A stretch of 64,000 nucleotides of DNA from Mycolicibacterium poriferae (GTDB lineage: Bacteria; Actinomycetota; Actinomycetes; Mycobacteriales; Mycobacteriaceae). This document shows positions 32,606 to 63,946 of this stretch, one piece after another. The notes beneath the pieces are model-generated. The model saw nothing but the letters and a program-made list of their open reading frames with translations. It searched no databases and was not told the DNA's origin. The translations under genes were made by a program, and so were the position numbers. The stretch covers positions 1,984,001 to 2,048,000 of the forward strand of contig NZ_AP022570.1 of NCBI RefSeq assembly GCF_010728325.1, read 5' to 3'. How positions within the stretch are numbered: the stretch's first letter is position 1; every line of letters starts with the position of its first letter.

Positions 32606-33943
32606 ATGAAAATGGCTGTTGTTGGAACGGGCTATTTGGGCGCCACCCATGCCGCGTGCATGGCTCGCCTCGGTCATGAGGTCATGGGTGTCGACATCGA
32701 CGAGGCGAAGCTCAGCAAGCTGCGATCCGGTGAGATGCCGTTCTACGAGCCAGGGCTCGAAGAGCTGACGCGAGAAATGGTCGCTTCGGGAAGACTCCAG
32801 TTCACCTCGTCGTACGAGGAGGCGGCAGAGTTCGCCGATGTGCACTTCCTCGCCGTCGGCACTCCCCAGAAGCGTGGTGAGTTCGCGGCCGACGTGTCGG
32901 CCCTTGAGTCGGTGATCAAACTGCTCGCGCCGTTGATCAACAGGCCGGCAGTCATTCTCGGAAAGTCGACGGTGCCAGTGGGAACGGCGCAGGAGATGCG
33001 GGCACTTGCCCGTAGCCTGTCGCCGGTCGGCGACGACCTCGAGCTCGGCTGGAATCCCGAGTTTCTCCGGGAGGGACACGCTATCAAGGACACCCTCGAG
33101 CCAGATCGCCTCGTCGTGGGCGTTGCCGACGATGGAGCCGGTCGAGCCGAGGCGGTTGCACGCGAGGTGTATGCAGATCTTCTGGCCAACGGTGTCCCGT
33201 TCTTGCTGACCGACCTCGCCACCGCCGAGCTTGCGAAGACTGCCGCCAACGCCTTCTTGGCGACGAAAATCTCGTTCATCAATGCGATCGCCGAAGTATG
33301 TGAGGCGGCAGGTGCCGACGTCGTACAACTGGCCGACGCCTTGGGCTATGACTCTCGGATTGGGCGCGCATTCCTCAACGCCGGTCTGGGGTTCGGGGGC
33401 GGCTGCCTGCCGAAGGACATCCGTGCGTTCATGGCTCGTGCCGGCGAAATGGGTGCCGCTCAGGCGTTGACCTTCCTCAGAGAGGTCGACAGCATCAACA
33501 TGCGTCGCCGCACCCAGATGGTCGAGATGGTCAAGCAGAGTTGTGGAGAACTTCTCGGTGCCCATGTAGCCGTGCTGGGAGCGGCGTTCAAACCCGACTC
33601 CGACGACGTCCGGGACTCCCCGGCGCTCAATGTCGCTGGCCAGCTGCAATTACAGGGCGCTACGGTCAACGTCTACGACCCCAAAGCGATGGACAATTCG
33701 CGGGCTCTGTTCCCGACGCTGGGTTACTCCACGTCGGCGCTTGAGGCCTGCGACAACGCCGACGTTGTTGTCGTACTGACGGAGTGGAAGGAATTCCGCA
33801 ATCTCGACCCCGTCGAGCTTGCCGGGATCGTCCGCCAGCGAAAGATGATCGATGGCAGGAACTGTCTCGACCCCGCAAGATGGATCGGAGCCGGCTGGCA
33901 ATACCGAGGGTTCGGTAGAGCGTCATCCCGGACAGCGAACTAG
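32606..33943 (+). CDS. ugd: UDP-glucose 6-dehydrogenase
   Basis: 445 aa, UDP-glucose/GDP-mannose dehydrogenase family. The N-terminal NAD site is AVVGTGYLGATHA, the nucleotide-sugar region includes NPEFLREGHAI, and the catalytic cysteine is C267 in GFGGGCLPKDIRAF. The C-terminal UDP-binding domain begins near AFKPDSDDVRDSPALN. It makes UDP-glucuronate, the direct precursor of the UDP-xylose synthesised by the decarboxylase at 63005-63946. I chose ATG 32606 because the protein then starts at the NAD-binding strand as in homologues. Confidence 0.9.
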   Translation: MKMAVVGTGYLGATHAACMARLGHEVMGVDIDEAKLSKLRSGEMPFYEPGLEELTREMVASGRLQFTSSYEEAAEFADVHFLAVGTPQKRGEFAADVSALESVIKLLAPLINRPAVILGKSTVPVGTAQEMRALARSLSPVGDDLELGWNPEFLREGHAIKDTLEPDRLVVGVADDGAGRAEAVAREVYADLLANGVPFLLTDLATAELAKTAANAFLATKISFINAIAEVCEAAGADVVQLADALGYDSRIGRAFLNAGLGFGGGCLPKDIRAFMARAGEMGAAQALTFLREVDSINMRRRTQMVEMVKQSCGELLGAHVAVLGAAFKPDSDDVRDSPALNVAGQLQLQGATVNVYDPKAMDNSRALFPTLGYSTSALEACDNADVVVVLTEWKEFRNLDPVELAGIVRQRKMIDGRNCLDPARWIGAGWQYRGFGRASSRTAN

Positions 33944-34020
33944 GGTCTCTCAGTCGGAAGCGCGTCAAAATGCCGCATTCGAGATCCCGCGCGGCATTGA
34001 GGCTCCGTCGAGACAGATGA

Positions 34021-34299
34021 TCAACGCCGCATGTGTGTGCGTTCCAGCAGCGTGACCCGCTGCCAGCTGGCGTAGGAGTAGCGCAGCTTGTCCACCGGAT
34101 GTCCCCACGGGTTGAGTTCCTGCGGGCCCGGTTCGTGATGGCCGCCTCCCGCGCTGGCGAGCACGGTTGCTAGCGCAGCGATCTCCTCCATGCTTGGGTC
34201 GCCTTTGAGGATCTGGAAGTGCGGTTCCGGGGCGGGCGGGTTGTCGATCGTCATGTCCCGCGGGTCGGAGACCTCGGCGATGTCGGTGTCCTGGCTCAT
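34021..34299 (-). CDS. accE5: Acyl-CoA carboxylase epsilon subunit
   Basis: 92 aa. The C-terminal half contains the epsilon-subunit features [20 protein letters not shown] and [18 protein letters not shown]. In mycobacteria AccE5 joins AccA3 and AccD5 to form an acetyl/propionyl-CoA carboxylase supplying malonyl- and methylmalonyl-CoA for lipid synthesis. It follows accD5 by 49 bp, as expected. No maf gene follows. Confidence 0.9.
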
Positions 34300-34348
34300 G
34301 GCTCACAGTCCTTGTCTGGCAGACGGTTCCGTCTAAGTGGGCGCGGGA

Positions 34349-36458
<2,110 letters not shown>

Positions 36459-36887: not shown

Positions 36888-36930
36888 CTCTCGTTGGTCG
36901 CTTGATACGAACTATCATTTCATAGCGTTG

Positions 36931-36964
36931 AAGCCTGTACGTCGCAAAGCCGACGTGCAGGCTT
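36931..36964 (+). terminator. Strong hairpin, terminator or attenuator before the DUF4012 gene
   Basis: AAGCCTGTACGTCG (36931-36944) pairs with CGACGTGCAGGCTT (36951-36964), 13 Watson-Crick pairs plus one G-U, with a 6-nt loop. The run TTTAACCTT follows. It lies between the secreted-protein gene and the polysaccharide operon, 24 bp before the next start, so it could end the first transcript or attenuate the second. Confidence 0.6.
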
Positions 36965-36987
36965 TAACCTTGCGCAGGGAATTGTGA

Positions 36988-38823
36988 GTGCGATTTTTTC
37001 CGCGACGGCAATCGGACGACGAGAATCCCGATGACCACGACGATGAAAAGCGACGGTCGCCGAGAATCCTACGTAGCCCTGGGTTCGTGTGGGGTGCAGC
37101 AGTGTTGGTGCTCGTCTTACTCGGGTTGGGTTGTTGGATAGCGATTGGCGCCTTTCAGGCGAAGTCGAATCTAGAGCAAGCTCGTAACAGTGCTCAGGAC
37201 GCCAAAGAAGCTCTGCTGGAGGGAAATGCGCAGGCAGCTTCGGAGTCCGCGGATAATGCACTCATCCGTGCGCAGGCGGCCCGCGACGCAACCCACTCCC
37301 TCGCCTGGAACATCGCCGCCGGCGTGCCGTGGCTCGGCAGCCCGTTCAAAACCGGCCAGCAGGTCACCGAAGTGGTCCTCGGCCTTGCCACCGACGTTCT
37401 GCGCCCAGCGGCTGATGTCGGAATCGCAATAGCCCCCGACATGCTCTACCGAGACGGTCGCGTGGACGTCGAATTGCTGCGCGCGCAAGAGCCTCAGCTG
37501 AGTGAATTATCCACCAACGCCATGCGGCTCAACGGCGACGCCGCCGCGATCACGGATCCGCGGTACGTCGCCCTCATGAGCGATGCACGGTCGCAGCTTC
37601 AAACACAGATTTCCAGCATCACCTCTGTTATCGAGAATGCAGCCCTGGCTGCGCGATTGGCGCCATCCATGATGGGCGCGGACGGGCCGCGTACCTACTT
37701 TATGGGATTTCAAACTAACGCCGAAGCGCGTGGAACCGGAGGCCTGCTTGGAGCCTACGGAATTCTTCGGTTCGACAATGGAACGCCGTCTGTTGACGAC
37801 TTGGCGCCGAATGACGACCTCTCCGACGCGGTTGCGCCCATCGAATTGGGGCTTGAGTACGACCAGCAGTATGGATATGCGCAACCGTTTACAGATATCC
37901 GCAATAGCAACTTGAGTCCGCATTTCCCTTACGCAGCACAAATATGGAGGGCAATGTGGGCGGAGGAAACTGGCACGGAAGTCGACGGCGTAATCGCGAT
38001 TGATCCGGTCGCATTAGGCTACATCCTCGGCGCTGTCGGCCCGGTTAGAATGCCGGATGGTGAGATAGTCACCAGAGAGAATGTGGTCGAATTGACGGAG
38101 TCGACCGCCTATATTCGCTTCCCGACAGACCAACCGGCTCGCCAACAGTTTCTACAAGATATCGCGAACGCTGTCGTTACAAAGATGACCGGCCCGGTTA
38201 AGTCACCAAGGAAGTTGTTAGATGCGCTCGGACAAGCAGTCAGAGAACGGCGCATTGCGGTGTGGAGTTCGATTCCCGCCGAGCAAAAACAAATAGAACA
38301 GACGCCTATGGCCCACGTTTTGCCAAGCGACGATGCTCCGTACGCGGCTGTGGTTGTGAATAATCTCGGTGGAAATAAGCTTGATTACTATCTCGACGCG
38401 CAGATTGAGTACGCAGCAGACGATTGCAGCGGTGAGACGCGAGCATCTACGGTTAACGTACAGTTGACCAACTCGGTTCCAGACGGGCCTTTGCCTGATT
38501 ATGTGGCGTCTGCGGCAGGCCTATCCCCTGAATTGCTTATGGCAGTCCCAAAGGGGACTAATATAACCTCTGTACGTCTCTACGGCACTAAAGGTGCGGA
38601 GTTGGCGAGTGCGCTTCTGAATGGCGAGCGTGTGCCTGCGATCCTTAATACTGAACGCGGACACCCTGTTTTTGAGGTGCAAGCTATTATTCCGCCAGGT
38701 CAGTCTGCAAATATCAGTTTTCAGTTATCAGAGCCAACAGCGCCAGGAGCCCCCCGTACACCATCTCAACCATTGCTCGACAATGTGGAACCGAAAGTCA
38801 TGGTGCCCGAATGCGCAGAGTAA
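36988..38823 (+). CDS. DUF4012 membrane-anchored protein, polysaccharide locus
   Basis: 611 aa. A charged cytoplasmic N-terminus (about 1-30) is followed by one membrane helix (FVWGAAVLVLVLLGLGCWIAI) and a large extracytoplasmic region. The DUF4012 core includes YFMGFQTNAEARGTGGLLGAYG and DGVIAIDPVALGYILGAVGPV. DUF4012 genes often lie in actinobacterial exopolysaccharide clusters beside Wzz/BY-kinase genes, as here, and may help polymer assembly or attachment. LytR-CpsA-Psr attachment domains share a similar fold, but I do not see their motif clearly. GTG 36988 follows CAGGGA. Confidence 0.82.
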   Translation: MRFFPRRQSDDENPDDHDDEKRRSPRILRSPGFVWGAAVLVLVLLGLGCWIAIGAFQAKSNLEQARNSAQDAKEALLEGNAQAASESADNALIRAQAARDATHSLAWNIAAGVPWLGSPFKTGQQVTEVVLGLATDVLRPAADVGIAIAPDMLYRDGRVDVELLRAQEPQLSELSTNAMRLNGDAAAITDPRYVALMSDARSQLQTQISSITSVIENAALAARLAPSMMGADGPRTYFMGFQTNAEARGTGGLLGAYGILRFDNGTPSVDDLAPNDDLSDAVAPIELGLEYDQQYGYAQPFTDIRNSNLSPHFPYAAQIWRAMWAEETGTEVDGVIAIDPVALGYILGAVGPVRMPDGEIVTRENVVELTESTAYIRFPTDQPARQQFLQDIANAVVTKMTGPVKSPRKLLDALGQAVRERRIAVWSSIPAEQKQIEQTPMAHVLPSDDAPYAAVVVNNLGGNKLDYYLDAQIEYAADDCSGETRASTVNVQLTNSVPDGPLPDYVASAAGLSPELLMAVPKGTNITSVRLYGTKGAELASALLNGERVPAILNTERGHPVFEVQAIIPPGQSANISFQLSEPTAPGAPRTPSQPLLDNVEPKVMVPECAE

Positions 38824-38857
38824 TAAGTGCGCTGTCTGCAGCGTTAGGGGGTAGGCG

Positions 38858-40357
38858 ATGAATCTCAGAGATTTTGTGAAGGTGTTGCGTTCTCGGTGGA
38901 TCACCGTGTGCGTGACGACTCTGATCGTGGTGCTGGGAGCGGTTGCGCTCTCGCTTCTGACAACGCCGATGTATCAGGCCTCGACAAGACTGTTCGTTTC
39001 AACAACTTCCGGACCGTCGGCTAGCGATATTTATCAAGGAAGTCGATTCTCACAAGAACGTGTCATCTCGTACGCGGAGCTACTGATGGGGCAAACAGTC
39101 GCTCAGCGCACTATCGACAAGTTGGGGCTGGACATGTCGTCGCAACAAATGCAAGACAATGTCACAGCCAGCGCAAAGCGAGATACGGTCCTGATTGACG
39201 TAAGCGTTCTCGACAGCTCACCTGTCCGAGCGCGCGATATCGCCAACACCTTATCCGACGAGTTCGTCGCCATGGTGCGTGAGCTTGAGACTCCAGAGAA
39301 CGGTGCAGCCCCTGACTCCCGGGTTGTCGTCGAACAGCGCGCATCAATACCTAGTGATCCGGTCGTCCCCGAGACCGCAAGAAATATTGCTACAGGACTC
39401 GCGTTGGGGATCATGTTGGGTGTTGGTCTGGCCATTCTCCGCGATGTTCTTGACAACACTGTAAAGCGCCGCGAAACTCTGGAAGAATTGACTGGGGCGG
39501 CTGTCGTGGGCACTGTTCCACTTGATAAGGAACGGCGCAAGCAGGCCGCGATTGCTTACGAAACTGACAACTCAGGCATTGCCGAGGCATTCAGGAAACT
39601 CCGAACGAATCTGCAGTTCTTAGCGGTGGACAATCCGCCACGGGTAATAGTAGTAACCAGCTCGGTGCCTTCCGAGGGAAAGTCCACAACCGCGATCAAT
39701 ATCGCGCTTGCGTTAGCAGAGGCAGAACACAGCGTGGCCCTCGTGGATGGGGATCTGCGTAGGCCAATGTTGCACAAATATCTAGATCTTATTGGGTCCG
39801 TGGGATTCAGCACGGTTCTCAGTGGGGGGGCGACACTCGATGAGGCACTGCAGAAGACCCGCTTTGCCGGCCTGACGGTACTCACATCTGGAGCTATACC
39901 ACCGAACCCGAGCGAACTACTTGGGTCGCAGTCTGCGAGAAACCTTCTGAGCGAACTGCGAGGACGGTTTGACTACGTCGTCGTTGATTCGACTCCGCTA
40001 CTCGCCGTTACCGACGCGGCAATTCTGGCCGCCGGCTCGGATGGCGTGCTTATTATGGCTCGCTATGGGCAGACAAAGCGTGAACAGCTTTCCCACGCTG
40101 TTGACAGCCTTCAGAGCGTTGGAGCGCCGTTGCTAGGTGCGGTCTTCACCATGATGCCTACACGAGGCTCAGCTTCCTATAGCTATTACGGGTACAGCTA
40201 TAAGTATGAGAGCGAGGACGGAAAGCCCCAGCCTCGCACTGATCGCCAGACGTCCCAAAGGCCGGTAGCGCACGACGGCAGTTCCACAACACCGAAGGTC
40301 GGGGACTCGAGAGCCGACCGTCCCCAGCCGACTGGCAGACGACGCCGCCAGTTGTGA
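38858..40357 (+). CDS. Wzz / BY-kinase fusion (polysaccharide chain-length tyrosine autokinase)
   Basis: 499 aa. The N-terminal Wzz domain has membrane helices at about 15-37 and 175-195 around an extracytoplasmic loop. The cytoplasmic kinase has Walker A SSVPSEGKST (268-277), Walker A' VALVDGDLRR (293-302) and Walker B YVVVDS (373-378). A Tyr-rich cluster YSYYGYSYKYE at 441-451 is the usual autophosphorylation site. It would set chain length and polymer export together with Wzx/Wzy. Modulator and kinase are one polypeptide, as in many actinobacteria and proteobacteria, not split as in Firmicutes. It lies 34 bp after DUF4012, same operon. Confidence 0.92.
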   Translation: MNLRDFVKVLRSRWITVCVTTLIVVLGAVALSLLTTPMYQASTRLFVSTTSGPSASDIYQGSRFSQERVISYAELLMGQTVAQRTIDKLGLDMSSQQMQDNVTASAKRDTVLIDVSVLDSSPVRARDIANTLSDEFVAMVRELETPENGAAPDSRVVVEQRASIPSDPVVPETARNIATGLALGIMLGVGLAILRDVLDNTVKRRETLEELTGAAVVGTVPLDKERRKQAAIAYETDNSGIAEAFRKLRTNLQFLAVDNPPRVIVVTSSVPSEGKSTTAINIALALAEAEHSVALVDGDLRRPMLHKYLDLIGSVGFSTVLSGGATLDEALQKTRFAGLTVLTSGAIPPNPSELLGSQSARNLLSELRGRFDYVVVDSTPLLAVTDAAILAAGSDGVLIMARYGQTKREQLSHAVDSLQSVGAPLLGAVFTMMPTRGSASYSYYGYSYKYESEDGKPQPRTDRQTSQRPVAHDGSSTTPKVGDSRADRPQPTGRRRRQL

Positions 40358-48146: not shown

Positions 48147-49454
<1,308 letters not shown>

Positions 49455-54125: not shown

Positions 54126-54145
54126 AGGTCGATATTCTGGGCAGC

Positions 54146-54210
54146 GGTCATCGCGTGGTTCCTTTGCTCGAGTGACTTTGGACGGTCCCTCGAAGAATCA
54201 CGCGATGACC
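54146..54210. repeat. Long inverted repeat near the IS boundary
   Basis: GGTCATCGCGTGGTTC (54146-54161) and GAATCACGCGATGACC (54195-54210) form a 16-bp stem with one mismatch and a 33-nt loop. It lies 20 bp after the right end of the IS1634-family element and before the ISL3 element. It could be the end of another element or a transcription terminator. Confidence 0.5.
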
Positions 54211-54428
54211 TTCAATCAGTCGGCTACGAACGCCGGACATCCTCATCAGGTCCGACTCGTACACCAACTTGTTGAATTCGAGCGGGATGCGCCGCCTGCA
54301 GCGATGCTCCCTGTGGTGGTGATCGGTCTGGCTCGTCGTACACCTGTCGCCCTCGGGCTGACTCCAAGAGTGGCCTGTCGGCCGATCGCCACCAACAGCG
54401 CGGAGTGGCTGAAGAGAGGCTTGTTCGA

Positions 54429-54436
54429 CCCAAAGT
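54429..54436 (+). repeat. Left copy of the ISL3 target-site duplication
   Basis: CCCAAAGT directly precedes the left terminal repeat; the same 8 bp follow the right end at 55911-55918. 8-bp duplications are the rule for ISL3. Confidence 0.92.
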
Positions 54437-55910
54437 GGCTCTTCGTGAATGAGGGTGCACTGATAGCTGCGGATATTCGCGCGCGGGTTGATCGTGTCGG
54501 TGAGCTGAGGCGGGGCCTCGGTGGGTGACGATGCGGGTTCCTACACACGCCCACCACGCCACCGAGGGGTCCCGTTGTCCGAGGTTACTGCCTGCCCGCG
54601 CTCTGTTGTTGCCGACACGATCATGCGCACCATCGAGTTGGGGGTCACGATCACCGATGCCGCGGTCGACGAGAAGCAGACGACGATCTTCTGCAGACCG
54701 GTGGTGCGGGATCCGCGTTGTCCGGACTGCGGCCGCGACGGCGCATATCGCGACACCGTGGTCCGGCCGTTGACCGATCTGCCGGTGGCCGGCTATCCGC
54801 TGGTGCTGCAGGTTGCCGTCCCGCGCTATCGCTGCCTCACCGCGGCGTGCGGGCGCATGGTGTTCAACCAGGACCTGGGCAAGCTGGCCGCACCGAGATC
54901 GTCAACGACGCGCCGCTGCGCCCGGTATGTGTTGCGGCGGTTGATCAACGACCGCACCACCATCTCAGCGATTGCCGCTGAACTGGGGGTGTCCTGGCAC
55001 ACGGTCAGCACGATCGCCATGCAGGCGACCGCAGCCCTGATCGAGGCCCACGGCGCTGCTCGACTTGACGGCGTGCGGGTCATCGGGGTCGACGAACACC
55101 GCTGGGCGCCCCGCCGGCGCGGCACCGAAGGCTTTGTCACCTTGATCATCGACCTCACACCCGTCGATGACGGCACCGGGCCCGCACGGCTGCTTGACCT
55201 GGTGGCAGGGCGCTCGGCGGCCGCACTGGCGACCTGGCTGGCTGAGCAGCCGCCGGCGTTTCGTGACCAGGTCGAGGTGATCGCCATGGACGGCTTCGGC
55301 GGCTACAAGACCGCCGCGACCGACGAGCTGCCCGAGGCCACCGCGGTGATGGATCCCTTCCACGTCGTTGCGCTGGCCGGCGCCAAACTTGACCTGATCC
55401 GCCAACGCATCCAACAGGCCACGTGCGGGCATCGCGGCCGCACCGGTGATCCGCTCTACGGGGTGCGGCGCACCCTGCGCACCCGCTTTCCGCTGCTCAC
55501 CAGCCGCCAACAGACACGGCTGGAAGCGGTGTTCGCCGACGACAACCACCTCGCGGTCCAGGTGACCTGGAGCGTCTACCAGCGCATCATCGCCGCCTAC
55601 GGCCACCCCGACCGGCGACGCGGCAAGACCATGATGATCGCGATCATCGACTCCCTGCGCCGCGGCGTCCCCGAGGCCCTCGAAGAACTCGCCCAGCTCG
55701 GCCGCACCCTGCACCGCCGCCGCCACGACGTGCTGGCGTTCTTCGACCACCACACCTCCAACGGACCCACCGAAGCGATCAACGGCCGCCTGGAAGCCCT
55801 GCGCCGCAACGCGCTCGGATTCCGAAATCTGGCCCACTACCGCTGGCGCTCACTACTACACAGCGGAGCCCTGCACGCACTGGTCAATGCACTCTGAATT
55901 ACGAAGAGCC
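54437..55910 (+). mobile_element. ISL3-family insertion sequence, intact
   Basis: 1474 bp with perfect 10-bp terminal repeats GGCTCTTCGT (54437-54446) and ACGAAGAGCC (55901-55910), the typical ISL3 end, and an 8-bp target duplication. Both ends, the duplication and the transposase frame are intact, so it is the youngest and probably active element in the window. It is inserted 48 bp upstream of the IS110 transposase gene (duplication excluded). Confidence 0.93.
54575..55897 (+). CDS. ISL3-family transposase
   Basis: 440 aa from TTG 54575, which is preceded by GAGGGG; homologues begin at this point (SEVTACPRSVVADT). The frame runs open to 54521, but that extension lies in the element's left end. 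A N-terminal zinc ribbon has CPDCGRDG and CLTAACGR, and the DDE domain shows VIGVDEHRWAPRR, MDGFGGYKTAA and the C-terminal GPTEAINGRLEALRR with its catalytic Glu. The frame is intact. Confidence 0.92.
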   Translation: MSEVTACPRSVVADTIMRTIELGVTITDAAVDEKQTTIFCRPVVRDPRCPDCGRDGAYRDTVVRPLTDLPVAGYPLVLQVAVPRYRCLTAACGRMVFNQDLGKLAAPRSSTTRRCARYVLRRLINDRTTISAIAAELGVSWHTVSTIAMQATAALIEAHGAARLDGVRVIGVDEHRWAPRRRGTEGFVTLIIDLTPVDDGTGPARLLDLVAGRSAAALATWLAEQPPAFRDQVEVIAMDGFGGYKTAATDELPEATAVMDPFHVVALAGAKLDLIRQRIQQATCGHRGRTGDPLYGVRRTLRTRFPLLTSRQQTRLEAVFADDNHLAVQVTWSVYQRIIAAYGHPDRRRGKTMMIAIIDSLRRGVPEALEELAQLGRTLHRRRHDVLAFFDHHTSNGPTEAINGRLEALRRNALGFRNLAHYRWRSLLHSGALHALVNAL

Positions 55911-55918
55911 CCCAAAGT
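55911..55918 (+). repeat. Right copy of the ISL3 target-site duplication
   Basis: CCCAAAGT directly follows the right terminal repeat and equals 54429-54436. Confidence 0.92.
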
Positions 55919-55966
55919 TGGTGTGCCCTCCTCGCAACCGAAAACCCGGTCGAGCTGAGGAGACCT

Positions 55967-57019
55967 ATGCCATCAACCCCGAACACATCCATGCCGTCGG
56001 TGATGATCGCGATCGACCCGCACAAACGGTCGTGGACCGCCGCGGCCGTTGATGCCCGGCTGCAACCGCTGGCGACGATCCGCGTCCCGGTCAGCCGAGA
56101 CGGCTACCGAACCCTGCTGCGCTTCGCCCGGCGATGGCCCGACACGGCGTGGGCGATCGAGGGCGCCAGCGGTCTCGGGGCTCCATTGACCGTTCGACTG
56201 CGTCAGGACGGCTTCACCGTCCTCGACGTCCAGGCCAAACTCGCAGCCAGAGTGAGGCTCCTCTCGACAGGACACGGTCGAAAGAGCGATGAGGCCGATG
56301 CCGTTTCGGTAGGCGTCGCCGCTCATACGTCCAGTTCTCTTACTACAGCCGAGATCGACTCTGCAACAACGGCTCTACGCGCACTAGTAGAACACCGCGA
56401 CGACCTCGTCAAGACCCGGACCCAAACCATCAACAGACTGCACACTGTTCTCACCCACCTGATTCCCGGCGGGGCAAGTCGCGACCTGAACGCCGACCGG
56501 GCCGCTGCGCTACTGCGCACCGTGCGCCCGCGAGACACCGCCGGAAAGACGCTACGAGCACTGGCCGCCGATCTGATCTCAGAACTGCGCGGACTCGACC
56601 GCAGAATCGACAAGGCTGTCCACGACATCGAGATGGCGGTCAAAGCCTGCGGCACCACCCTGACCGAGCTACACGGCATCGGGGCACTCATGGCCGCCAA
56701 AATCGTCTCCAGAGTCGGCTCCATCCACCGCTTCAACTCACCAGCGGCTTTCGCCAGCTACACCGGCACAGCCCCAATCGAAGTGTCGTCCGGAGACGTC
56801 GTCCGACACCGACTTTCCCGAGCCGGCGATCGTCAACTCAACTACTGCCTGCACGTCATGGCCATCACCCAAATCCGACGAGACACACAGGGGCGTACCT
56901 ACTACCTGCGCAAACGCGCCAACGGCAAGAGCCACAGCGAAGCGATGCGCTGTCTGAAAAGGCGACTCTCCGACACCGTCTACCGACAGCTGCTCAACGA
57001 CGCCAACACCACGACTTGA
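55967..57019 (+). CDS. IS110-family transposase
   Basis: 350 aa. The N-terminal RuvC-like (DEDD) domain starts VMIAIDPHKRSWTAA with its first Asp, followed by AIEGASGLGAPL and GRKSDEADAVSVG. The C-terminal Tnp2 domain has GIGALMAAKIVSRVGSIHRF and FASYTGTAPIEVSSG with a candidate catalytic Ser near SSGD. GAGGAG precedes the ATG. IS110 elements recombine without target duplication and are guided by a structured RNA from a non-coding end. The region 5' of this gene is split by the ISL3 element, so guide RNA synthesis may be lost. The 232 bp after the stop should hold its right end, which I cannot delimit. Confidence 0.9.
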   Translation: MPSTPNTSMPSVMIAIDPHKRSWTAAAVDARLQPLATIRVPVSRDGYRTLLRFARRWPDTAWAIEGASGLGAPLTVRLRQDGFTVLDVQAKLAARVRLLSTGHGRKSDEADAVSVGVAAHTSSSLTTAEIDSATTALRALVEHRDDLVKTRTQTINRLHTVLTHLIPGGASRDLNADRAAALLRTVRPRDTAGKTLRALAADLISELRGLDRRIDKAVHDIEMAVKACGTTLTELHGIGALMAAKIVSRVGSIHRFNSPAAFASYTGTAPIEVSSGDVVRHRLSRAGDRQLNYCLHVMAITQIRRDTQGRTYYLRKRANGKSHSEAMRCLKRRLSDTVYRQLLNDANTTT

Positions 57020-57251
57020 CACAGAGAGGCGCCACTCTGCTGGACGCAACCGGAGTGCGACCCGCTCACCGGCGAGGTGATCCGCCCATCACGTACTACG
57101 GCCGTGCGTAATGAACATTGCTGTCCAGGCGCGGATTGGTCCGCATGGACGTCAAGCCAGATACACCTAGCGTCAGCCCGCGCTCGATTGGGGTCCGGCC
57201 ATTTTCGTATTGATCCTGCTGTCAAGTTGTATGTGTAGATCCGGCCCACCG

Positions 57252-58529
57252 TCACTTGACGTGCTTCAACTTGGTCTGAGAGGCAACCTGTTCTGAATAA
57301 AATGCGTTCTCCAAATCTAGGAAGTGCTTCTCCCATGTCCACTCGGCTAACACGTAACTTCGCGCAGCATTTCCGAATTCGTCAGCCAGTTTGGGATCTC
57401 GCAACAACCTAACCACTGCCCCCGCGAATTCCTCCGCTTCATCCGCGATGATCAGCACATCGCTGGGGGCGCAGATGCCTTCATTTGCCACGCTCGATGC
57501 AACAACTGCCTTATTGCATGCCATATATTCAATCAGCTTGTTTTGCATGCCTCCAGCCGCTCGCATCGGATTGACGCATACTTGCGCTGACCGGATAAGC
57601 ACTCCGACATCCTCTACGGTCCCCGTAACCCAGATTCCATCTCGTCCGTCTAGGGCGAGCACTGCCGGAGCTGGGTTCTGTCCCTGAATCACAAATGTGG
57701 CGTCTGGAATGGTGGACTTGACTTTTGGCCACACTTTGTCAACAAACCATAGGACGGCTTGAATATTCGGGGCGTACTGCATACCGCCCGAAAAAATCAC
57801 ACGACCGGGAACCACATCTTCGGGTTTCGCTGCATTAAACTTGTCGGTATCCGTGCCGTGTGCACCGTATATCCAGTTGTTTATTTCAGGTTGTCCGTGA
57901 ACGCGGCACTGTTCCTTAATGGCGGCTACATCTGCCGGACCAATTAGTACGACCTTATCGAAGTCCTGCCAGACTCTTGCTTCGTATCGTCCCATCAGTC
58001 GTGTTTCAAGGCGGTAGACACAGCGTTTGAGGACGCTTTGCTCCTCATCGGCGATTCTTTTTGTGTTCAAGGTCTGGGACAGTTGCAGGGCAAGGAACGA
58101 CGATGCATTTGCGTCACGACACACATCGGTGGGTACAGCGGGTGAACTTCGCGGGTAGTAGCAGTAGACGACATCGTATTGGCCAGATTTTACGGCCCGT
58201 TCAAGCTCACGCTTCATCTTTGTATTGCGAAAAATACTTACTTGCAGTGGTAGTAGCGAAAATGCTCCAACGACGAGGCCGCCAACTTTTTTGTACCACG
58301 GCTGCGCATAAATGCGGGCTTGTCGACACGCCTGCTCAAGCCAGCGTCGCTGCTCCGCGTCGAGTCTTCCATCAACTGCAAGCGTGTAAAGATCGACGCT
58401 GTGGCCGCGCTTAGCGAGAAAACTAATTAAATGAGCGACCGTAACTTGGTCGCCGCGCATCATCGGGAATGGAAAGCGACTGTACAGAACAGCAATGCGC
58501 AAAGGTGCCTGCGCAGTCTCGCATTCCAT
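57252..58529 (-). CDS. GT4-family glycosyltransferase (TIGR03087-like)
   Basis: 425 aa from ATG 58529; an in-frame start at 58601 is possible. The N-terminal domain begins IAVLYSRFPFPMMRGDQVTV, and the C-terminal domain shows FSGGMQYAPNIQAVLWFVD and TGTVEDVGVLIRSAQVCVNP, the nucleotide-sugar-binding region of this subgroup. Subgroup members are often in exopolysaccharide loci. It would add one sugar of the repeat unit. It is transcribed leftwards, opposite to the Wzx/Wzy genes, and follows the AlgD-like gene after 68 bp. Confidence 0.86.
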   Translation of the reverse strand: MECETAQAPLRIAVLYSRFPFPMMRGDQVTVAHLISFLAKRGHSVDLYTLAVDGRLDAEQRRWLEQACRQARIYAQPWYKKVGGLVVGAFSLLPLQVSIFRNTKMKRELERAVKSGQYDVVYCYYPRSSPAVPTDVCRDANASSFLALQLSQTLNTKRIADEEQSVLKRCVYRLETRLMGRYEARVWQDFDKVVLIGPADVAAIKEQCRVHGQPEINNWIYGAHGTDTDKFNAAKPEDVVPGRVIFSGGMQYAPNIQAVLWFVDKVWPKVKSTIPDATFVIQGQNPAPAVLALDGRDGIWVTGTVEDVGVLIRSAQVCVNPMRAAGGMQNKLIEYMACNKAVVASSVANEGICAPSDVLIIADEAEEFAGAVVRLLRDPKLADEFGNAARSYVLAEWTWEKHFLDLENAFYSEQVASQTKLKHVK

Positions 58530-58597
58530 TTTCCGTGGCAATCTATCGTTCGCCACTAGGCCCCCTAAGGTTAGAATTGGCTGGACGTTACCGATCC

Positions 58598-59857
58598 TCA
58601 CGCCAGCCGGTTAATGTCTATGATACGTGCTGCGTCGATCGAATACCTGTCGGCGACGCTACGTGTATCAATTACGAGGTCCCACTCCGTGCGCTCGACA
58701 TCATCGCGGGTAATAAGAAGTCGTGTTATGAACGGCGAATTTGAGAGTACTCCCAAATTCTGGCCCATCAGGTTCTGCGGTGCCACGTGTGGGTCGTAGA
58801 CAGAGAGGCGAAATCCCGCTGTGAGAAGCATCCGCGCCAAGTCAACATTAGGACTCTCGCGTAGGTCATCGCTTTCGTTCTTAAATGCGATGCCGAGCAT
58901 CAATACCTGCGCGCCGTAGTCCAGTCCCTGGGTTACATGGTCGTAAAGAAATGCTTTATGGGATTCGTTCGACGCGATCAAAGAGTCGATCAAATGGGTG
59001 TATCCCCCTGTAGTCCGTGCGATGTGTTGAAGGGCTCGAACGTCTTTGGGAAGACAGGACCCTCCAAAAGCGCCTCCTGGCCGTAAATAATAGGGTGAAA
59101 TGTTGAGTTTGGTATCTGAGACGAAAATTTTGTGCACCTCGGCGGCGCTGATATCCAAACGGGCGCATATGCGACCGATCTCGTTCGCGAACGTCGTTTT
59201 CACAGCATGAAAAGCGTTGTCTACAAATTTTGTGATTTCACTCTCTCGGTACCCGACGTAAAACACAGGTGCTTCAATCCCGGAGTTGATTTCCTCGAGC
59301 GCCGGACATGGTTCTCTATTCTTTGTGCCAATGACAATTTTTGGTGGCGCGAAATAGTCTTTAATGGCGGACGATTCGCGGAGGAACTCCGGGTTATACA
59401 CCACATTAACACGGCAAGAGTTTGCGCCAAGTGCGCCGTCGAAAATTGGTTGAATAAGTTCCTCGATCGAGCCTGGGCGCATTGTGGACCGGTAGGCCAC
59501 AGTCAGATCGGACACGGAATGCACCTTCATAAATTCGGCGAGTTGGCGGGTCGCCTCGGCAATATATGACATATTATGCGAGCCATCCACAGCGCTAGGA
59601 GTGCCGACGCAGACGATAACTAGTTCGTATTCGGCCACTTCGGGCGATAGCGATGTGCTCGCGAGTAGTCTTCCCTTGGTATGCGCATCCGCTACGAGAT
59701 CGTTTAGCCCGGGTTCCGTGATTGGTGACTTGCCAGCAAGTACGGCATCGACCTTCGTCGGGTTGGGGTCAATGCCGAGGACCTGATGGCCCTGGCTCGC
59801 CAGGCATGCTGCGGCGGTCATACCTACATAGCCCAAACCTAGAATGGCGATCTTCAT
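58598..59857 (-). CDS. GDP-mannose 6-dehydrogenase-like (AlgD-like)
   Basis: 419 aa. The sequence resembles AlgD more than Ugd: LGLGYVGMTAAACLA at the NAD site, KSPITEPGLNDLV, NPEFLRESSAIKDY with PPKIVIG, and the catalytic Cys268 in GGAFGGSCLPKDVRAL, the same number as in Pseudomonas AlgD. It would oxidise GDP-mannose to GDP-mannuronate. A UDP-sugar substrate is not excluded. The start ATG 59857 follows GGGGGGAG. It heads a two-gene transcript with the GT4 gene. Confidence 0.82.
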   Translation of the reverse strand: MKIAILGLGYVGMTAAACLASQGHQVLGIDPNPTKVDAVLAGKSPITEPGLNDLVADAHTKGRLLASTSLSPEVAEYELVIVCVGTPSAVDGSHNMSYIAEATRQLAEFMKVHSVSDLTVAYRSTMRPGSIEELIQPIFDGALGANSCRVNVVYNPEFLRESSAIKDYFAPPKIVIGTKNREPCPALEEINSGIEAPVFYVGYRESEITKFVDNAFHAVKTTFANEIGRICARLDISAAEVHKIFVSDTKLNISPYYLRPGGAFGGSCLPKDVRALQHIARTTGGYTHLIDSLIASNESHKAFLYDHVTQGLDYGAQVLMLGIAFKNESDDLRESPNVDLARMLLTAGFRLSVYDPHVAPQNLMGQNLGVLSNSPFITRLLITRDDVERTEWDLVIDTRSVADRYSIDAARIIDINRLA

Positions 59858-60685
59858 TGCGCTCCCCCCGGGCTGGTAAGAACCTGCCCTTTTGACGGTG
59901 ACTACCATGCCTGAGCAGTCAGGCGTGATGCCGGTTACGGCGGACGCAATGCTATCGCCAGCGCTCCTGGAGCGCATCAAGCAGTAGGGAGCACGGCTGG
60001 CCCTGAATGGTTGCGTGATCGAACACATTCCCTCAGGTCACGTCCGAGATCGCACGCGATAGGCGCGCTCTCGCGCCTATTTGACGAGGCGTAGCACTCC
60101 GCAAAACCCTCATCGATGGGTCGTCCTGCTGAAGACAGCGCCTTCGATGAAGACGTCCTCGCGAATTAAATACGGGGGTAGTCGAGAGAGCAAGTGCAGT
60201 TGTGGAAGGGCCAAGCATCGAAAGAGTAAATCATCATGATTGGCTTCTGCTCCCATCCGAGAGCGAGCGGCGGCGGCCTGACCGCGGGGCAGATTAGCTG
60301 TTCGATCTTACGGATGAAGAGGGTTGGATGAAGTCCGCAGGGGGCGATATCTCGCTACGCCATGCTCGTCCGATGCGTCGCCCCCTGAGCACCAACTAGC
60401 CGCTAGGTCTAGTCCCCTTCGCCCAGCGGCGATTGGACAGCATGATCAATGACCGGTGTGGAACCCGGGGACAGATGCCAGCCATTAAGCTAGACAATGA
60501 TGAATACCCGTTCGCTAGCAGGGTGCGTAAGGGTGCCAGGCGGGACCCACGGAGAGAAAGTGGGATAGGAGCTCGGGGCCAGAGCCGCGTGTCAGCCGCG
60601 CGATGCGAGCCGGCGCGCAATCGGACGCAAAGAAAGGAGGTTGAGAGACGGTCCTGACCTTAGGTCGCCGCGCTCTTAATTGCCT
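59858..60685. other. Long gene-free divergent region
   Basis: 828 bp between the divergent AlgD-like and lyase genes with no supported gene; several short frames on both strands lack signals. It contains a hairpin at 60059-60080 and a strong ribosome-binding-like AAAGGAGG at 60633-60640 that has no start codon in range. It should hold promoters for both sides. IS remnants could also be hidden here but I see no transposase sequence. Confidence 0.5.
60059..60080. terminator. Hairpin in the divergent region
   Basis: Perfect 9-bp stem ATAGGCGCG (60059-60067) and CGCGCCTAT (60072-60080) with a CTCT loop, followed by TTGACG. As it lies between divergent genes it may be a regulator site or the relic of an older terminator. 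Confidence 0.4.
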
Positions 60686-61552
60686 ATGCGAGCCTTCCAC
60701 ATTTTTCGCTCATTGTTAACCCGTAATGGATGGACTCCATCCGTCGCTATAATTGTGGCGGTCGGGCTAATCGCCAACCCAATCGAACTGTCTGAAGGTG
60801 ATTTAGGATATCCTCTGTCGGGGTACAACTTAAATGCGGTAGATTATGTCACCGTCGACTCACGCCGGATGCGCGTGCAGGCTGTAGAAGAAAAGCACGC
60901 GTTTTCAATCGCGGCGAAAGATACATACCGATTTGAAACGCGTAAAAACGATTTCGGTTGGAGCGGAGACAAAAAGAGCAATAACCGGCGATCTGAACTC
61001 ATTGCGAATGATGCGCGCTATTACTCAGGCGAGGTCTTGTGGTCGTCTTTTAGCTTCGTCGTAGGGCCAAAGCATGTGCCGTTCGACAACGGTAAAAGCA
61101 GTCACAACCAGATTACTCAATGGCACTCTGTCGACGGCGACGACGAAGGGCGCGCGCCTGTTTTCGACATTCAACTCAATGGAGGTGATCTCCTGGTAGT
61201 CACGCGCTCGGACGCTAAGGGCCCAGCTACCTGGGACGTCCACTACAGGCAGCCACGCCCTAGCGATGGTGCGCAACACAGTGTTGTGGTGGCGGGTCTA
61301 CTAGGCAGGAGGGGGCATCTCGATGTGTGGCTTGATGGAAATCAGATAGTAAACGTTGACACCCCCATCGGCTATTACGAGGACGATGGAGGCCAAAGAG
61401 CACTGGCCTACCCGCACTGGGGTTTATATCAAGACAATGTCGATCACCCTGCGATTATCTACCACTCCAACATCGAGTGGGGACTAGCAAATTTATCGGA
61501 CCGCATTAATCACCCGAAAAACGTAAACAAGCCATCCGGGGGATGGTCCTAG
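60686..61552 (+). CDS. Polysaccharide lyase, heparin-lyase-I-like fold
   Basis: 288 aa from ATG 60686 (TTG 60680 is an alternative). A hydrophobic segment (VAIIVAVGLIANP) near the N-terminus is a signal peptide or anchor, so the enzyme is extracytoplasmic. The body has the jelly-roll pattern of the Polysacc_lyase family (PF14099), including NRRSELIAN, ITQWHSVDGDDEG, GHLDVWLDGNQIVN and HWGLYQDNVDHPAIIYHSNI. Family members cleave glucuronan- or heparin-like polymers by beta-elimination. With the heparinase II/III-like protein at 40684, the locus encodes two lyases of unrelated fold. The substrate is presumably the island's own polymer. Confidence 0.78.
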   Translation: MRAFHIFRSLLTRNGWTPSVAIIVAVGLIANPIELSEGDLGYPLSGYNLNAVDYVTVDSRRMRVQAVEEKHAFSIAAKDTYRFETRKNDFGWSGDKKSNNRRSELIANDARYYSGEVLWSSFSFVVGPKHVPFDNGKSSHNQITQWHSVDGDDEGRAPVFDIQLNGGDLLVVTRSDAKGPATWDVHYRQPRPSDGAQHSVVVAGLLGRRGHLDVWLDGNQIVNVDTPIGYYEDDGGQRALAYPHWGLYQDNVDHPAIIYHSNIEWGLANLSDRINHPKNVNKPSGGWS

Positions 61553-61781
61553 AAGCGCGGCGACCCGTTTATGCCGCTGCTGGTAAAATTGACAGCCTAT
61601 CGCTTTTGTTTTCTTAGGTGAGAGAACAGCAAAATTGCTGCTCCGAAATCTCGGCGGTGCCACCGCGAGTCACGTTTCCCTAGCTGGCGGCCTCCCAGAT
61701 TCAGTGCCGTATTTCAGCGCCAGAGCGAGGCAATGCTGACAGATCATGCGGGGTGAGGTTGTCCTCAACGCGATAAATCGC
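61553..61781. other. Convergent intergenic region, 229 bp
   Basis: No gene and no clear terminator. It separates the lyase gene from the convergent GT4 gene. Confidence 0.4.
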
Positions 61782-62915
61782 CTACCCCCGAAGGGCGGAG
61801 AAAATCGTCTCAACGTGTTTATCCCAGGATAGAACTTCCGTTACATAAGCTTTTCCTGCCGAAGCAATGCGGACGTGAGCTTCTGGATCCTTGATGACAG
61901 CGTTGATGGTGTTGACCAACTGGATTTGATTAGTTCCATCAACTAGTAGTCCGGTTTTGCCGTCTTCGATGAAGTCGGATGGGCCGGACCCGTTACCTGC
62001 GATTGCGAGGCAGCCAAATGACATCGCGTCAGCAATCGAGAGGCCAAAGCCTTCAAAATCCTTGTTGTCTTCGAGGTCAATCTGTGGATGCAAAAACACG
62101 TCACTCGACGCATAGAGGCGCGGCACGTCGTCACTCTCAACATAGCCAAGAAAGCGCACATGCTCCATAAGTCCAGCTTTCTCGCATTGTTCTTCAAGCT
62201 CTCTAGCCAGAGGCCCCGTACCTGCGACCCGGTATTGAAAATCAGTTACACCTGCAGCTTTGAGCGTCTGAAAAGCACGAATGCATCCCTGGACGTTCTT
62301 GCGTTCTACTAGTCGGGCCAGTGTAAGGAATCGAACCGGCCGGGAAAGTGTAATACGCTCCTCCGCCGCACTTTCAACCCCTGAATTGCCGCTTGCGTAC
62401 GAAAGGCCGTTAGCGGCCACCAACCAACGTGTCGTATCAATTTTTCGGCCAGTTTGTCTCTTTGCGCGCTCAAGGGTAGCTGAAGACACAGCAACGACGA
62501 TATTTGCTCGACGGAAGACGGCCCACATGATTGGCGCGAGGATACGTGGCACGATTAAAAGCTCGCGACCGTGCGCTGAGATCACTATCTGTTCGTCCCG
62601 GCGAAGGGCCACGGGAATCATCGCGGGCCGCCACGTTGTAGCGTGAATAAAGTCAAATGAATTAACCTTGGCGACGGCGTCTACTACGCGCAACATTTTA
62701 AGGGCCGTAACGCCCTGTCCGCCTGCGCCTGTGTTGAAAAGAGCCACTTTTCCCTCAGGGTATTCGCGAACTCCCCAACCGCATTGGCCCAGCGATTGCG
62801 TAATAACTGTCACTTCAGCACCGCGCGCTAGGTAGGCTTTCGCAATCTGCTCTGAATAAGTTTCGACTCCACCGGTAATGGGTGGAAAGGCCTTACACAG
62901 CATTAAGATGTTCAC
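61782..62915 (-). CDS. GT4-family glycosyltransferase
   Basis: 377 aa, GT-B fold. The N-terminal MLCKAFPPITGGVETYSEQIA is the PPxxGGxE motif of family 4, and the C-terminal domain has LTLARLVERKNVQG and a terminal region with DFEGFGLSIADAMSFGCLAIA (E-x7-E motif). Retaining mechanism expected. It would transfer mannose, xylose or another sugar of the repeat unit. ATG 62915. It follows the UDP-glucuronate decarboxylase gene after 89 bp, same direction. Confidence 0.9.
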   Translation of the reverse strand: MNILMLCKAFPPITGGVETYSEQIAKAYLARGAEVTVITQSLGQCGWGVREYPEGKVALFNTGAGGQGVTALKMLRVVDAVAKVNSFDFIHATTWRPAMIPVALRRDEQIVISAHGRELLIVPRILAPIMWAVFRRANIVVAVSSATLERAKRQTGRKIDTTRWLVAANGLSYASGNSGVESAAEERITLSRPVRFLTLARLVERKNVQGCIRAFQTLKAAGVTDFQYRVAGTGPLARELEEQCEKAGLMEHVRFLGYVESDDVPRLYASSDVFLHPQIDLEDNKDFEGFGLSIADAMSFGCLAIAGNGSGPSDFIEDGKTGLLVDGTNQIQLVNTINAVIKDPEAHVRIASAGKAYVTEVLSWDKHVETIFSALRG

Positions 62916-63004
62916 GATTTTACTCTCAACCCTCGATCGTCATTAGTGCTTGTGATTCAGGGGGGACTTGACAAAGGCGGACGAGGTATGGTCATGCTAT
63001 TTTG

Positions 63005-63946
63005 TCATTTGCCGCTTAATTCGTGAAAGTATTGAATTGTCCGCGACAGGCCGTCCTCAAGCTGAACCTGAGGATCCCAATTGAGGCTAGTTTTTGCTAG
63101 GGTGATATCCGGTTGTCGCTGCCTCGGGTCATCAGACGGTAGATTTTCAAAGCGAATCGTGGAATTGCTTTGAGTCAGCGACAGCACTTTCTCTGCAAGT
63201 TCAAGCATTGTAAATTCGGCGGGATTACCGATGTTGACGGGACCGGTGAAGGAGGGCGGGGCGTCCATTAATCGCACCATCCCGTCAATTAGATCGTCCA
63301 CATAGCAGAAACTGCGGGTTTGGCTGCCGTCTCCGTAGATTGTCAACGGCTCGCCCCGTAGCGCTTGAACGATGAAGTTGCTAACGACTCGTCCGTCATC
63401 TGCGTTCATTCGCGGACCGTAAGTATTGAAGATCCGCATCACTTTGATGGACATATTGTGCTGACGGTGATAATCGAAAAACAGGGTCTCCGCGGCCCGC
63501 TTACCTTCGTCGTAGCAGCTCCGTGCACCGATAGGGTTTACGTGTCCCCAATATCGCTCTGGTTGGGGATGTACTTCAGGGTCGCCGTAAACTTCGGAAG
63601 TCGAGGCTTGAAGTACAGGTACCCGCAAGCGTTTTGCGAGGCCGAGGATGTTGATCGCGCCCATCACGCTGGTCTTCGTGGTTTGCACTGGGTCGCGCTG
63701 ATAATGAATCGGCGAAGCCGGACAGGCGAGATTGTAGATCTCGTCGACCTCGACGTAAAGCGGAAACGTCACGTCGTGGCGCATCAGTTCAAAGTTAGGG
63801 TTATCGATGAGGTTCGCGATATTTGCTTTTCGGCCCGTGTAAAAGTTGTCGACACACAAGATTTCGTGGCCTTCGCCGAGCAAACGTTCAGCAAGGTGAG
63901 AGCCAAGAAAACCGGCACCCCCGGTGACGAGCACGCGCTTAGACAC
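63005..63946 (-). CDS. UDP-glucuronate decarboxylase (UDP-xylose synthase)
   Basis: 313 aa extended SDR. NAD motif [13 protein letters not shown], the decarboxylase-typical [34 protein letters not shown] with the active-site Ser/Glu (S117, E118) and the catalytic Tyr145-x3-Lys149 in [11 protein letters not shown]. This series is characteristic of UDP-glucuronic acid decarboxylases. Together with Ugd at 32606 it gives UDP-glucose to UDP-glucuronate to UDP-xylose. ATG 63946. The remaining 54 bp of the window are its leader. Confidence 0.88.

What the first reader, a model, noticed from the sequence alone, without database searches (positions are those of the whole stretch)
32606..63946. Candidate Wzx/Wzy-type acidic, possibly sulfated exopolysaccharide system in a mycobacterium
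The genes here form nearly a full assembly line: chain-length kinase (38858), flippase (42986), polymerase (50685), two GT4 enzymes (57252, 61782), precursors via Ugd (32606), AlgD-like (58598) and UDP-glucuronate decarboxylase (63005), two sulfotransferases (44445, 49455) and two lyases (40684, 60686). Family knowledge predicts a uronic-acid/xylose polymer with sulfate groups, reminiscent of glycosaminoglycans or alginate. I recall no described mycobacterial capsule made this way. No initiating phosphoglycosyl transferase is visible; it may lie right of the window. Whether the polymer is sulfated and made at all is inference.
Basis: partly seen in the sequence, partly recalled or inferred. 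Interest (0 to 1): 0.87.

Follow-up and report, generated by a model that had tools for sequence, protein, structure and literature searches.

The report
Variable capsule-type sugar-polymer locus in mycobacteria
This stretch of a mycobacterial chromosome carries a near-complete set of genes for building an acidic, possibly sulfated surface sugar polymer, and it looks like one version of a gene locus that many mycobacterial species carry with similar ends but different middles, like the capsule loci of other bacteria.

Summary
Window 36,988 to about 66,288 (the last 2.3 kb lie right of the window) encodes a Wzx/Wzy polysaccharide pathway: DUF4012 protein, Wzz/Wzc kinase, flippase, polymerase, two GT4 enzymes, UXS, AlgD-like dehydrogenase, two sulfotransferases, two lyase-type proteins. 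The missing WbaP-type initiator starts within 160 bp of the window's end, followed by a Wzb-type phosphatase.

It is not a lone island. DUF4012 occurs in 126 of 396 genus genomes. Of 43 such loci read, 40 have wzc within 820 bp on the same strand and 39 a Wzb gene downstream, but middles differ: 91 many-TM proteins form 74 clusters at 40% identity. Six of eight genomes lacking DUF4012 show the site nearly empty. This is capsule-locus anatomy; nine literature searches listed no mycobacterial account.

Sulfotransferases occur in 3 of 43 middles, so the sulfated form is rare. Best guess: a repeat of three or more sugars with mannuronate and xylose, sulfated, trimmed by lyases, one folding most like heparin lyase I. 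Polymer, sugars and sulfate are inferred; no OPX exporter gene was found.

The parts
36988..38823 (+). DUF4012 protein, frame gene of the locus
   Evidence: PF13196 158 bits; relatives in 126 of 396 genus genomes
38858..40357 (+). Wzz/Wzc chain-length co-polymerase and tyrosine kinase
   Evidence: PF02706, PF13614; TIGR01007 175 bits, cut-off 108
40684..42447 (+). heparinase II/III-type lyase
   Evidence: PF07940 111 bits, PF16889 24 bits; 54% to a protein of the M. aurum locus
42986..44245 (+). probable Wzx flippase
   Evidence: PF01943 20 bits, below cut-off 28; 12 TM by crude count; 43% to a protein of the M. aurum locus
44445..45389 (+). sulfotransferase 1
   Evidence: PF13469 47.5 bits
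45390..49310 (.). insertion-sequence-type DNA; matches to IS1182 and IS3 genes cover parts of it
49317..50429 (+). sulfotransferase 2 (start 49317 or 49455)
   Evidence: PF13469 50 bits; PDB 3rnl 82 bits
50685..52022 (+). Wzy repeat-unit polymerase
   Evidence: TIGR04370 57 bits, cut-off 40; relatives annotated O-antigen polymerase
52470..57019 (+). three transposase-type genes (DDE_Tnp_1 below cut-off; ISL3 and IS110 above)
57252..58601 (-). GT4 glycosyltransferase, overlapping the AlgD-like open frame's stop
   Evidence: PF13692 87 bits
58598..59857 (-). AlgD-like nucleotide-sugar dehydrogenase
   Evidence: PDB 1mfz GDP-mannose 6-dehydrogenase 291 bits against 211
60680..61552 (+). PF14099 polysaccharide lyase
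61782..62915 (-). GT4 glycosyltransferase
   Evidence: PF00534 126 bits; 55% to a protein of the M. aurum locus
63005..63946 (-). UXS, UDP-glucuronate decarboxylase
   Evidence: human UXS1 420 bits against 138
32606..33943 (+). Ugd, likely UDP-GlcA supply, outside the cluster proper
   Evidence: PF03721/PF00984/PF03720; one of three such dehydrogenases in the genome
34349..35998 (-). accD5-type carboxyltransferase, left border of the site
   Evidence: PF01039 684 bits; borders the near-empty site in genomes without DUF4012

Best explanation
The locus from about 37 to 66.3 kb makes a Wzx/Wzy-dependent acidic capsule or exopolysaccharide. The WbaP-type enzyme just right of the window loads the first hexose-1-phosphate on the lipid carrier; two GT4 enzymes add two more sugars, most likely mannuronate (GDP-ManA from the AlgD-like enzyme, whose gene abuts one GT4) and xylose (UDP-Xyl from UXS, fed by Ugd). 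Sulfotransferases add sulfate from PAPS; Wzx flips the unit; Wzy polymerises it under the Wzz/Wzc kinase and Wzb phosphatase; DUF4012 helps assembly or anchoring in an unknown way; the lyases trim or release chains. The locus is one version of a mycobacterial capsule-type locus with a common frame and changing middles. SHOWN by computation: gene identities, recurring ends, variable middle, near-empty site. INFERRED: expression, the sugars, the sulfate, the order of steps, the lyase role.
For: Initiator, Wzz/Wzc and polymerase pass curated cut-offs; UXS and AlgD-like assignments have wide margins; Wzb open frame holds the CTGNICRSP loop. Common frame and variable middle over 43 loci. 26 of 43 middles hold a nucleotide-sugar dehydrogenase over 150 bits, which suggests that uronic acids or their derivatives are common here. 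Two lyase-type proteins fit uronic acid, the kind of residue that lyases act on (family knowledge). AlgD-like loci hold a lyase in 4 of 6, others in 5 of 37 (chosen after seeing the data; Fisher p 0.012, 0.040 without the window; a weak heparinase-like hit in G172 was not counted). APS kinase for PAPS is in the genome. Two-sulfotransferase Wzx/Wzy clusters exist in Synechocystis, with a sulfated product, and in Actinoplanes (passages).
Against: Flippase under its Pfam cut-off. Polymerase model poor, pLDDT 54, so not searched. Sulfotransferases in only 3 of 43 middles, so sulfate is no general trait; sulfotransferase 1 has no solved relative. No OPX gene found in the genome, so passage through the mycomembrane is unexplained. 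Insertion-sequence DNA lies at two places inside the cluster, and 917-bp identical direct repeats bracket sulfotransferase 2 and wzy. No usual start codon lies upstream of the Wzb loop (open frame 182 aa; longest ATG/GTG/TTG frame 137 aa lacks the loop). Substrates of GTs, dehydrogenase and lyases are not determined. Neither lyase has a sequence match of note in the PDB. No expression data.
Confidence: 0.7

Rival explanations
1. The polysaccharide is made, but the two sulfotransferases act on something else, such as a glycolipid or an imported compound, so the polymer is not sulfated.
For: Mycobacteria sulfate lipids (recalled), and other PF13469 proteins lie elsewhere in this genome (9 matches in all, counting two for the broken-up sulfotransferase 2 match). 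Only 3 of 43 middles hold such a gene.
Against: Both genes sit inside the low-G+C cluster among polymer genes. Sulfotransferase 2 resembles heparan sulfate sulfotransferases weakly (32 bits) and has relatives inside two other such loci, G079 and G009.
Confidence: 0.3
2. The locus is a decaying relic: insertion sequences have entered it and it is silent.
For: Insertion-sequence DNA at 45.4-49.3 and 52.4-57.0 kb, with a 917-bp repeat; unclear Wzb start.
Against: The core genes are open over their whole alignable length with relatives: wzx and wzy align nearly end to end with M. aurum proteins. The insertion-sequence DNA lies between genes.
Confidence: 0.12
3. The acidic sugar is glucuronate or galacturonate, not mannuronate: the AlgD-like enzyme uses a UDP-sugar.
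For: Related enzymes with UDP-glucose score 211 bits, and NCBIfam gives UDP-glucose 6-dehydrogenase models, all far below their cut-offs. The lyase fold is near heparin lyase and glucuronan lyase.
Against: 80-bit margin in favour of AlgD; the genome has two further dehydrogenases that could supply UDP-GlcA.
Confidence: 0.3
4. The product is not a free capsule but a glycan attached to wall or protein.
For: No OPX exporter found; Wzx/Wzy units can be passed to other acceptors (general knowledge).
Against: A polymerase and a Wzz/Wzc-Wzb pair of the kind used for capsules and exopolysaccharides are present.
Confidence: 0.25

Closest known systems
Bifidobacterium longum 105-A CPS/EPS locus (PMC5412050; passages read)
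   Same: priming transferase, DUF4012 and wzz side by side; wzx and wzy weakly conserved; transposase or integrase genes in or beside it
   Different: rhamnose precursor genes; no sulfotransferase, uronate or lyase gene seen in the passages read
Synechocystis xss cluster for synechan (PMC8205485; passages read)
   Same: Wzx/Wzy cluster with co-polymerase and two sulfotransferases of distinct subfamilies; the product is described as sulfated
   Different: cyanobacterium; eight GTs; OPX gene elsewhere in its genome; no lyase, UXS or AlgD-like gene mentioned in the passages read
Actinoplanes missouriensis wps-1 cluster (PMC13390465; passages read)
   Same: actinomycete Wzx/Wzy cluster with two sulfotransferases, one of heparan-sulfate type, and a polysaccharide-degrading enzyme
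   Different: needed for sporangia; GH26 enzyme instead of lyases; sulfation unverified there too
Vibrio sp. KMM 8419 sulfated capsule (PMC11641403; passages read)
   Same: sulfotransferase genes in a capsule cluster, sulfated polymer shown
   Different: ABC-transporter capsule; PAPS genes inside the cluster
Alginate system (recalled)
   Same: AlgD-type precursor enzyme and a polymer-trimming lyase
   Different: alginate is synthase-dependent; this locus is of Wzx/Wzy type
Heparin lyase I, PL13 (PDB 3ina, 3imn, 9grw)

Membership tests
Wzx/Wzy-dependent polysaccharide pathway | initiating phosphoglycosyl transferase | tested here: met
   PF02397 229 bits; open frame 64115-65644, first usual start 64160
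Wzx/Wzy-dependent polysaccharide pathway | Wzx flippase | tested here: inconclusive
   PF01943 20 bits under cut-off 28; 12 TM by a crude count; profile match probability 79.5
Wzx/Wzy-dependent polysaccharide pathway | Wzy polymerase | tested here: met
   TIGR04370 57.2 bits, cut-off 40
Wzx/Wzy-dependent polysaccharide pathway | co-polymerase/kinase and Wzb phosphatase | tested here: met
   TIGR01007 175 bits; PF01451 34 bits and CTGNICRSP loop in the open frame, start codon unclear
Wzx/Wzy-dependent polysaccharide pathway | OPX outer-membrane exporter (form with an outer membrane) | tested here: not met
   no PF02563 match at E 0.001 in the genome
capsule-type locus with common frame and changing middle | same ends, different Wzx/Wzy and other genes between species | tested here: met
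   40 of 43 loci have DUF4012 and wzc on one strand within 820 bp, 39 of 43 Wzb downstream; 91 polytopic proteins in 74 clusters at 40%
capsule-type locus with common frame and changing middle | polymer on the surface; variation within a species | not testable with these tools
   needs chemistry; strains of one species were not compared
sulfated polysaccharide cluster (xss-like) | sulfotransferases inside the cluster | tested here: met
   two PF13469 proteins over cut-off
sulfated polysaccharide cluster (xss-like) | sulfate on the product | not testable with these tools
   no polymer data
GDP-mannose 6-dehydrogenase (AlgD) | closer to AlgD than to UDP-sugar dehydrogenases | tested here: met
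   291 against 211 bits among solved proteins; substrate not assayed
UDP-glucuronate decarboxylase (UXS) | closer to UXS than to related epimerases and dehydratases | tested here: met
   420 against 138 bits among solved proteins
heparin lyase I (PL13) | fold and catalytic residues of PL13 | tested here: inconclusive
alginate biosynthesis | Alg8-type synthase | not tested
   no such match among the locus proteins scanned, but the genome was not searched for it

The most novel reading that the evidence does not exclude
About a third of mycobacterial species carry a serotype-type capsule locus whose middle is exchanged between species, and this version makes a sulfated mannuronate/xylose polymer, a glycosaminoglycan-like surface coat edited by its own heparin-lyase-like enzyme. 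That would change the picture of a uniform mycobacterial capsule of glucan, mannan and arabinomannan (that picture is recalled).
Probability: 0.35. Interest if true: 0.88.

Novelty: new variant of a known kind. Interest (0 to 1): 0.68.

Why it matters
Mycobacterial surface sugars are usually described as conserved (recalled: alpha-glucan, arabinomannan, mannan). A review of mycobacterial biofilm matrix names cellulose in M. tuberculosis biofilms and says that further polysaccharides there remain to be identified (PMC6364259, passages). A locus with a common frame and a changing middle, whose marker gene is in 126 of 396 genus genomes, would make surface variation, phage receptors and biofilm matrix in environmental mycobacteria testable by single deletions. 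A sulfated version would add mycobacteria to the few bacteria with sulfated polysaccharides, which two papers call confined to cyanobacteria (PMC8205485, PMC13390465, passages), although a Vibrio sulfated capsule is also in print (PMC11641403, passages).

Tried and rejected
Isolated-island idea: rejected, since frame genes recur. Wzy as the marker: it finds only 4 of 396 genus genomes, the window's own among them and one weak (E 2.9e-4); DUF4012 is the better marker. Structure of Wzy: pLDDT 54, no fold search run. PDB sequence search for the two lyases: nothing meaningful. The Foldseek list for the lyase also holds toxin binding domains; I take these as the common jelly-roll fold, they rank below the lyases and were not pursued. 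Rfam: nothing at gathering score in 30-64 kb. tRNA genes: none in the window. Plasmid origin: DUF4012 is on 11 plasmid records, none mycobacterial; the Rhodococcus pDK1 region holds another polysaccharide cluster. Search with the sulfotransferase 1 alignment: only this genome of 396 at E 1e-8, but just five candidates a genome were scored at least in the rows shown, and a Mycolicibacterium sp. PAM1 protein of the family exists outside the sample, so this is a lower bound. Lyase and AlgD association: post hoc, small numbers. Species name not established: the second contig is nearest to a plasmid of M. vanbaalenii (97%), and near records may be left out of that search. The 43 loci are a choice from the 126 genomes with a DUF4012 match (complete or long contigs preferred); 83 were not read. 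Middles were defined by script; where no Wzb gene was found they run 28 kb or to the end of the stretch, and their 675 open frames (120 aa or more, longest first) include some that are not genes. Sulfotransferase families other than PF13469 were not searched by profile in the middles. Loci L007, L150-L153 were fetched and not analysed; of the 10 genomes searched, 8 were fetched.
Full report
WHAT IS THERE. The window is bases 1984001-2048000 of a 5.71 Mb contig in a 5.93 Mb genome of two contigs. G+C is about 0.66-0.72 in most of the left half and falls to 0.53-0.57 in much of 37-64 kb. The cluster also holds a DUF4012 protein (36988-38823) just before the Wzz/Wzc kinase. Right of the window lies a Bac_transf initiator, open frame 64115-65644 with a first usual start at 64160 (229 bits). 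It is followed by a Wzb-type phosphatase frame ending at 66288, which holds the CTGNICRSP loop; the first ATG, GTG or TTG of that frame, 65875, lies after the loop, so its start is unclear. The genome holds three PF02397 enzymes in all.

PRECURSORS AND MODIFIERS. UXS at 63005-63946 is clear: human UXS1 scores 420 bits and the next kind of enzyme 138. The dehydrogenase at 58598-59857 is nearer to GDP-mannose 6-dehydrogenase AlgD (291 bits) than to any solved UDP-glucose dehydrogenase (211 bits). The genome has three such dehydrogenases, one of them Ugd at 32606, and one APS kinase match. Sulfotransferase 2 aligns with the solved bacterial sulfotransferase 3rnl over 299 residues, including the GAPRCGTTSLHNYI and RDPVKLISSY stretches, which from recall I take as the two PAPS-binding motifs, and weakly with heparan sulfate 3-O-sulfotransferases (32 bits). 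Sulfotransferase 1 has 17 family members found, the window's own among them; the source names one of them sulfotransferase.

THE LOCUS ACROSS THE GENUS. The polymerase matches 4 of 396 genus genomes, the window's own included, at 49%, 27% and one weak partial match; a scan of named genomes gives Mycobacterium aurum (50%), Nocardioides soli (45%) and Pannonibacter (30%). DUF4012 is in 126 of 396 (116 of the 361 good-quality ones), and in 60 of 150 genomes drawn from the order. I read 43 of the 126 loci. In 41 of 43 a Wzc relative of over 55% identity lies within 820 bp of DUF4012 (40 of 43 on the same strand); in 39 of 43 a Wzb relative lies downstream of DUF4012, 31 on the same strand and 8 on the other (in one, G002, it lies between DUF4012 and wzc). 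G207 and G332 lack the adjacent wzc; G172, G332, G223 and G019 lack a Wzb match in the stretch held, and the G019 contig ends there. The stretch between differs: 91 proteins with at least seven predicted membrane segments fall into 74 clusters at 40% identity, 60 of them singletons; of 481 clusters of all middle open frames at 40%, 396 are confined to one locus. 37 of 43 middles have two or three such membrane proteins, as one Wzx and one Wzy would give; the others have none (G002, G344), one (G172, G223, G019) or four (G136). In 15 of 43 at least one of accD5, bPH, gtrA, purK, upps or amox lies in the fetched stretch, which places them at the window's site; the rest show none and may lie elsewhere. 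Of eight genomes without DUF4012 examined, six have accD5 followed within 0.2-4.4 kb by bPH, gtrA and purK, a near-empty site; one (G020) has only bPH, 6.6 kb away, and one (G021) an initiator-type gene 8.6 kb away and no bPH match.

HOW COMMON ARE THE SPECIAL FEATURES. Among the 43 middles, the window's included: nucleotide-sugar dehydrogenase (over 150 bits) in 26; UXS (over 250 bits) in 10; sulfotransferase in 3, namely the window (two genes), G079 and G009 (the genome searches with PF13469, place matches in the same three fetched loci and in no other). PF14099 lyases occur in 33 of 396 genomes; by position seven fall inside the 43 loci (G000, G027, G084, G225, G098, G136, G344). AlgD-like genes of 69-73% identity occur in five other loci, six with the window; four of these six hold a lyase, against five of the other 37 (post hoc; a weak heparinase-like hit of 44 bits in G172 was not counted). 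G344 and G009 also share the GT4 at 57252 strongly (691 and 387 bits), which is why I assign that GT4 to mannuronate transfer. This step is inference.

MECHANISM. One initiator and two GT4 enzymes give a minimum of three sugars per repeat. The simplest reading is hexose, mannuronate, xylose, sulfated before flipping, polymerised outside by Wzy under Wzz/Wzc and Wzb, and trimmed by lyases. UDP-GlcA may be only the precursor of UDP-xylose. PAPS is cytosolic (general knowledge), so sulfation before flipping is assumed; signal peptides were not tested. How a chain crosses the mycomembrane without an OPX protein (no PF02563 match in the genome) is open; DUF4012, the constant partner of wzc here, is a candidate to test. 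It also sits next to wzz in Bifidobacterium, which as a monoderm (recalled) has no outer membrane, so it cannot be specific to that step.

MOBILE DNA. 45.4-49.3 kb has matches to IS1182 and IS3 transposase genes over parts of it, and 52.4-57.0 kb holds an ISL3 and an IS110 transposase over cut-off and a weak DDE_Tnp_1 match. A 917-bp stretch is identical at 46683-47599 and 53209-54125, in the same direction, so sulfotransferase 2 and wzy lie between perfect direct repeats and could be gained or lost together.

WHAT IS KNOWN. The B. longum 105-A CPS locus has priming transferase, DUF4012 and wzz in a row (passages). Synechan in Synechocystis comes from a Wzx/Wzy cluster with two sulfotransferases, and its authors knew of none in other bacterial clusters in 2021 (passages). 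Actinoplanes wps-1 is a Wzx/Wzy cluster with two sulfotransferases; its authors say that sulfation awaits experimental proof (passages). A Vibrio sulfated capsule is proposed to use an ABC transporter (passages). Nine searches of the paper library listed nothing that I recognised as a Wzx/Wzy capsule locus of mycobacteria; I judged by titles and abstract starts, three searches listed only 20 of 132, 20 of 70 and 15 of 72 papers, and the library lacks most subscription journals. The locus is thus a new variant of a known kind: the kind is old, its form as a locus with changing middle in mycobacteria and its sulfated, mannuronate-type version appear undescribed.

SCORES. Wzx/Wzy acidic polysaccharide locus: about 0.88. 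Product sulfated: about 0.55. Contains mannuronate: about 0.5. Capsule-type locus with changing middle between species: about 0.85; within species untested.

Noticed in passing
right of window, 66413-78810 in window coordinates (L004): A second, higher-G+C polysaccharide cluster follows directly: GH6 hydrolase, Wzy_C protein, clear Wzx (PF13440 245 bits), weak GT4, GT2, WecG, Wzc-like ATPase, methyltransferase, epimerase. Two polysaccharide pathways seem to sit side by side.
   Followed up: partly
right of window, 79741-84472 (L005): GAF protein, second WbaP-type initiator, undecaprenyl-diphosphate-synthase-like protein and amine oxidase in a row; the set recurs at 59-74% identity in G276, G342, G054, G267 and G197.
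   Followed up: partly
window 46683-47599 and 53209-54125: 917-bp perfect direct repeats bracket sulfotransferase 2 and wzy; recombination could delete or swap this pair.
   Followed up: partly
window 36988-38823: DUF4012 is a constant partner of wzc in these loci and occurs across the order (60 of 150 genomes), with no known role that I found (3 papers hold the word). Copies in G011, G034 and G056 carry an internal stop.
   Followed up: partly
G000 contig C2 (216 kb), L149: Second contig resembles a 353 kb plasmid of Mycolicibacterium vanbaalenii (97% over 94% of the first 20 kb) and in part one of M. gilvum Spyr1.
   Followed up: no
window 36459-36887: Small 142-aa protein with a signal-like start just before DUF4012; relatives in 15 of 43 loci, 14 of which also show the accD5/purK-type site markers.
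   Followed up: no
G241 and G295 loci (L101-L102, L105-L106): Two DUF4012-wzc frames stand about 26-27 kb apart in one genome, so two such loci can be in tandem.
   Followed up: no
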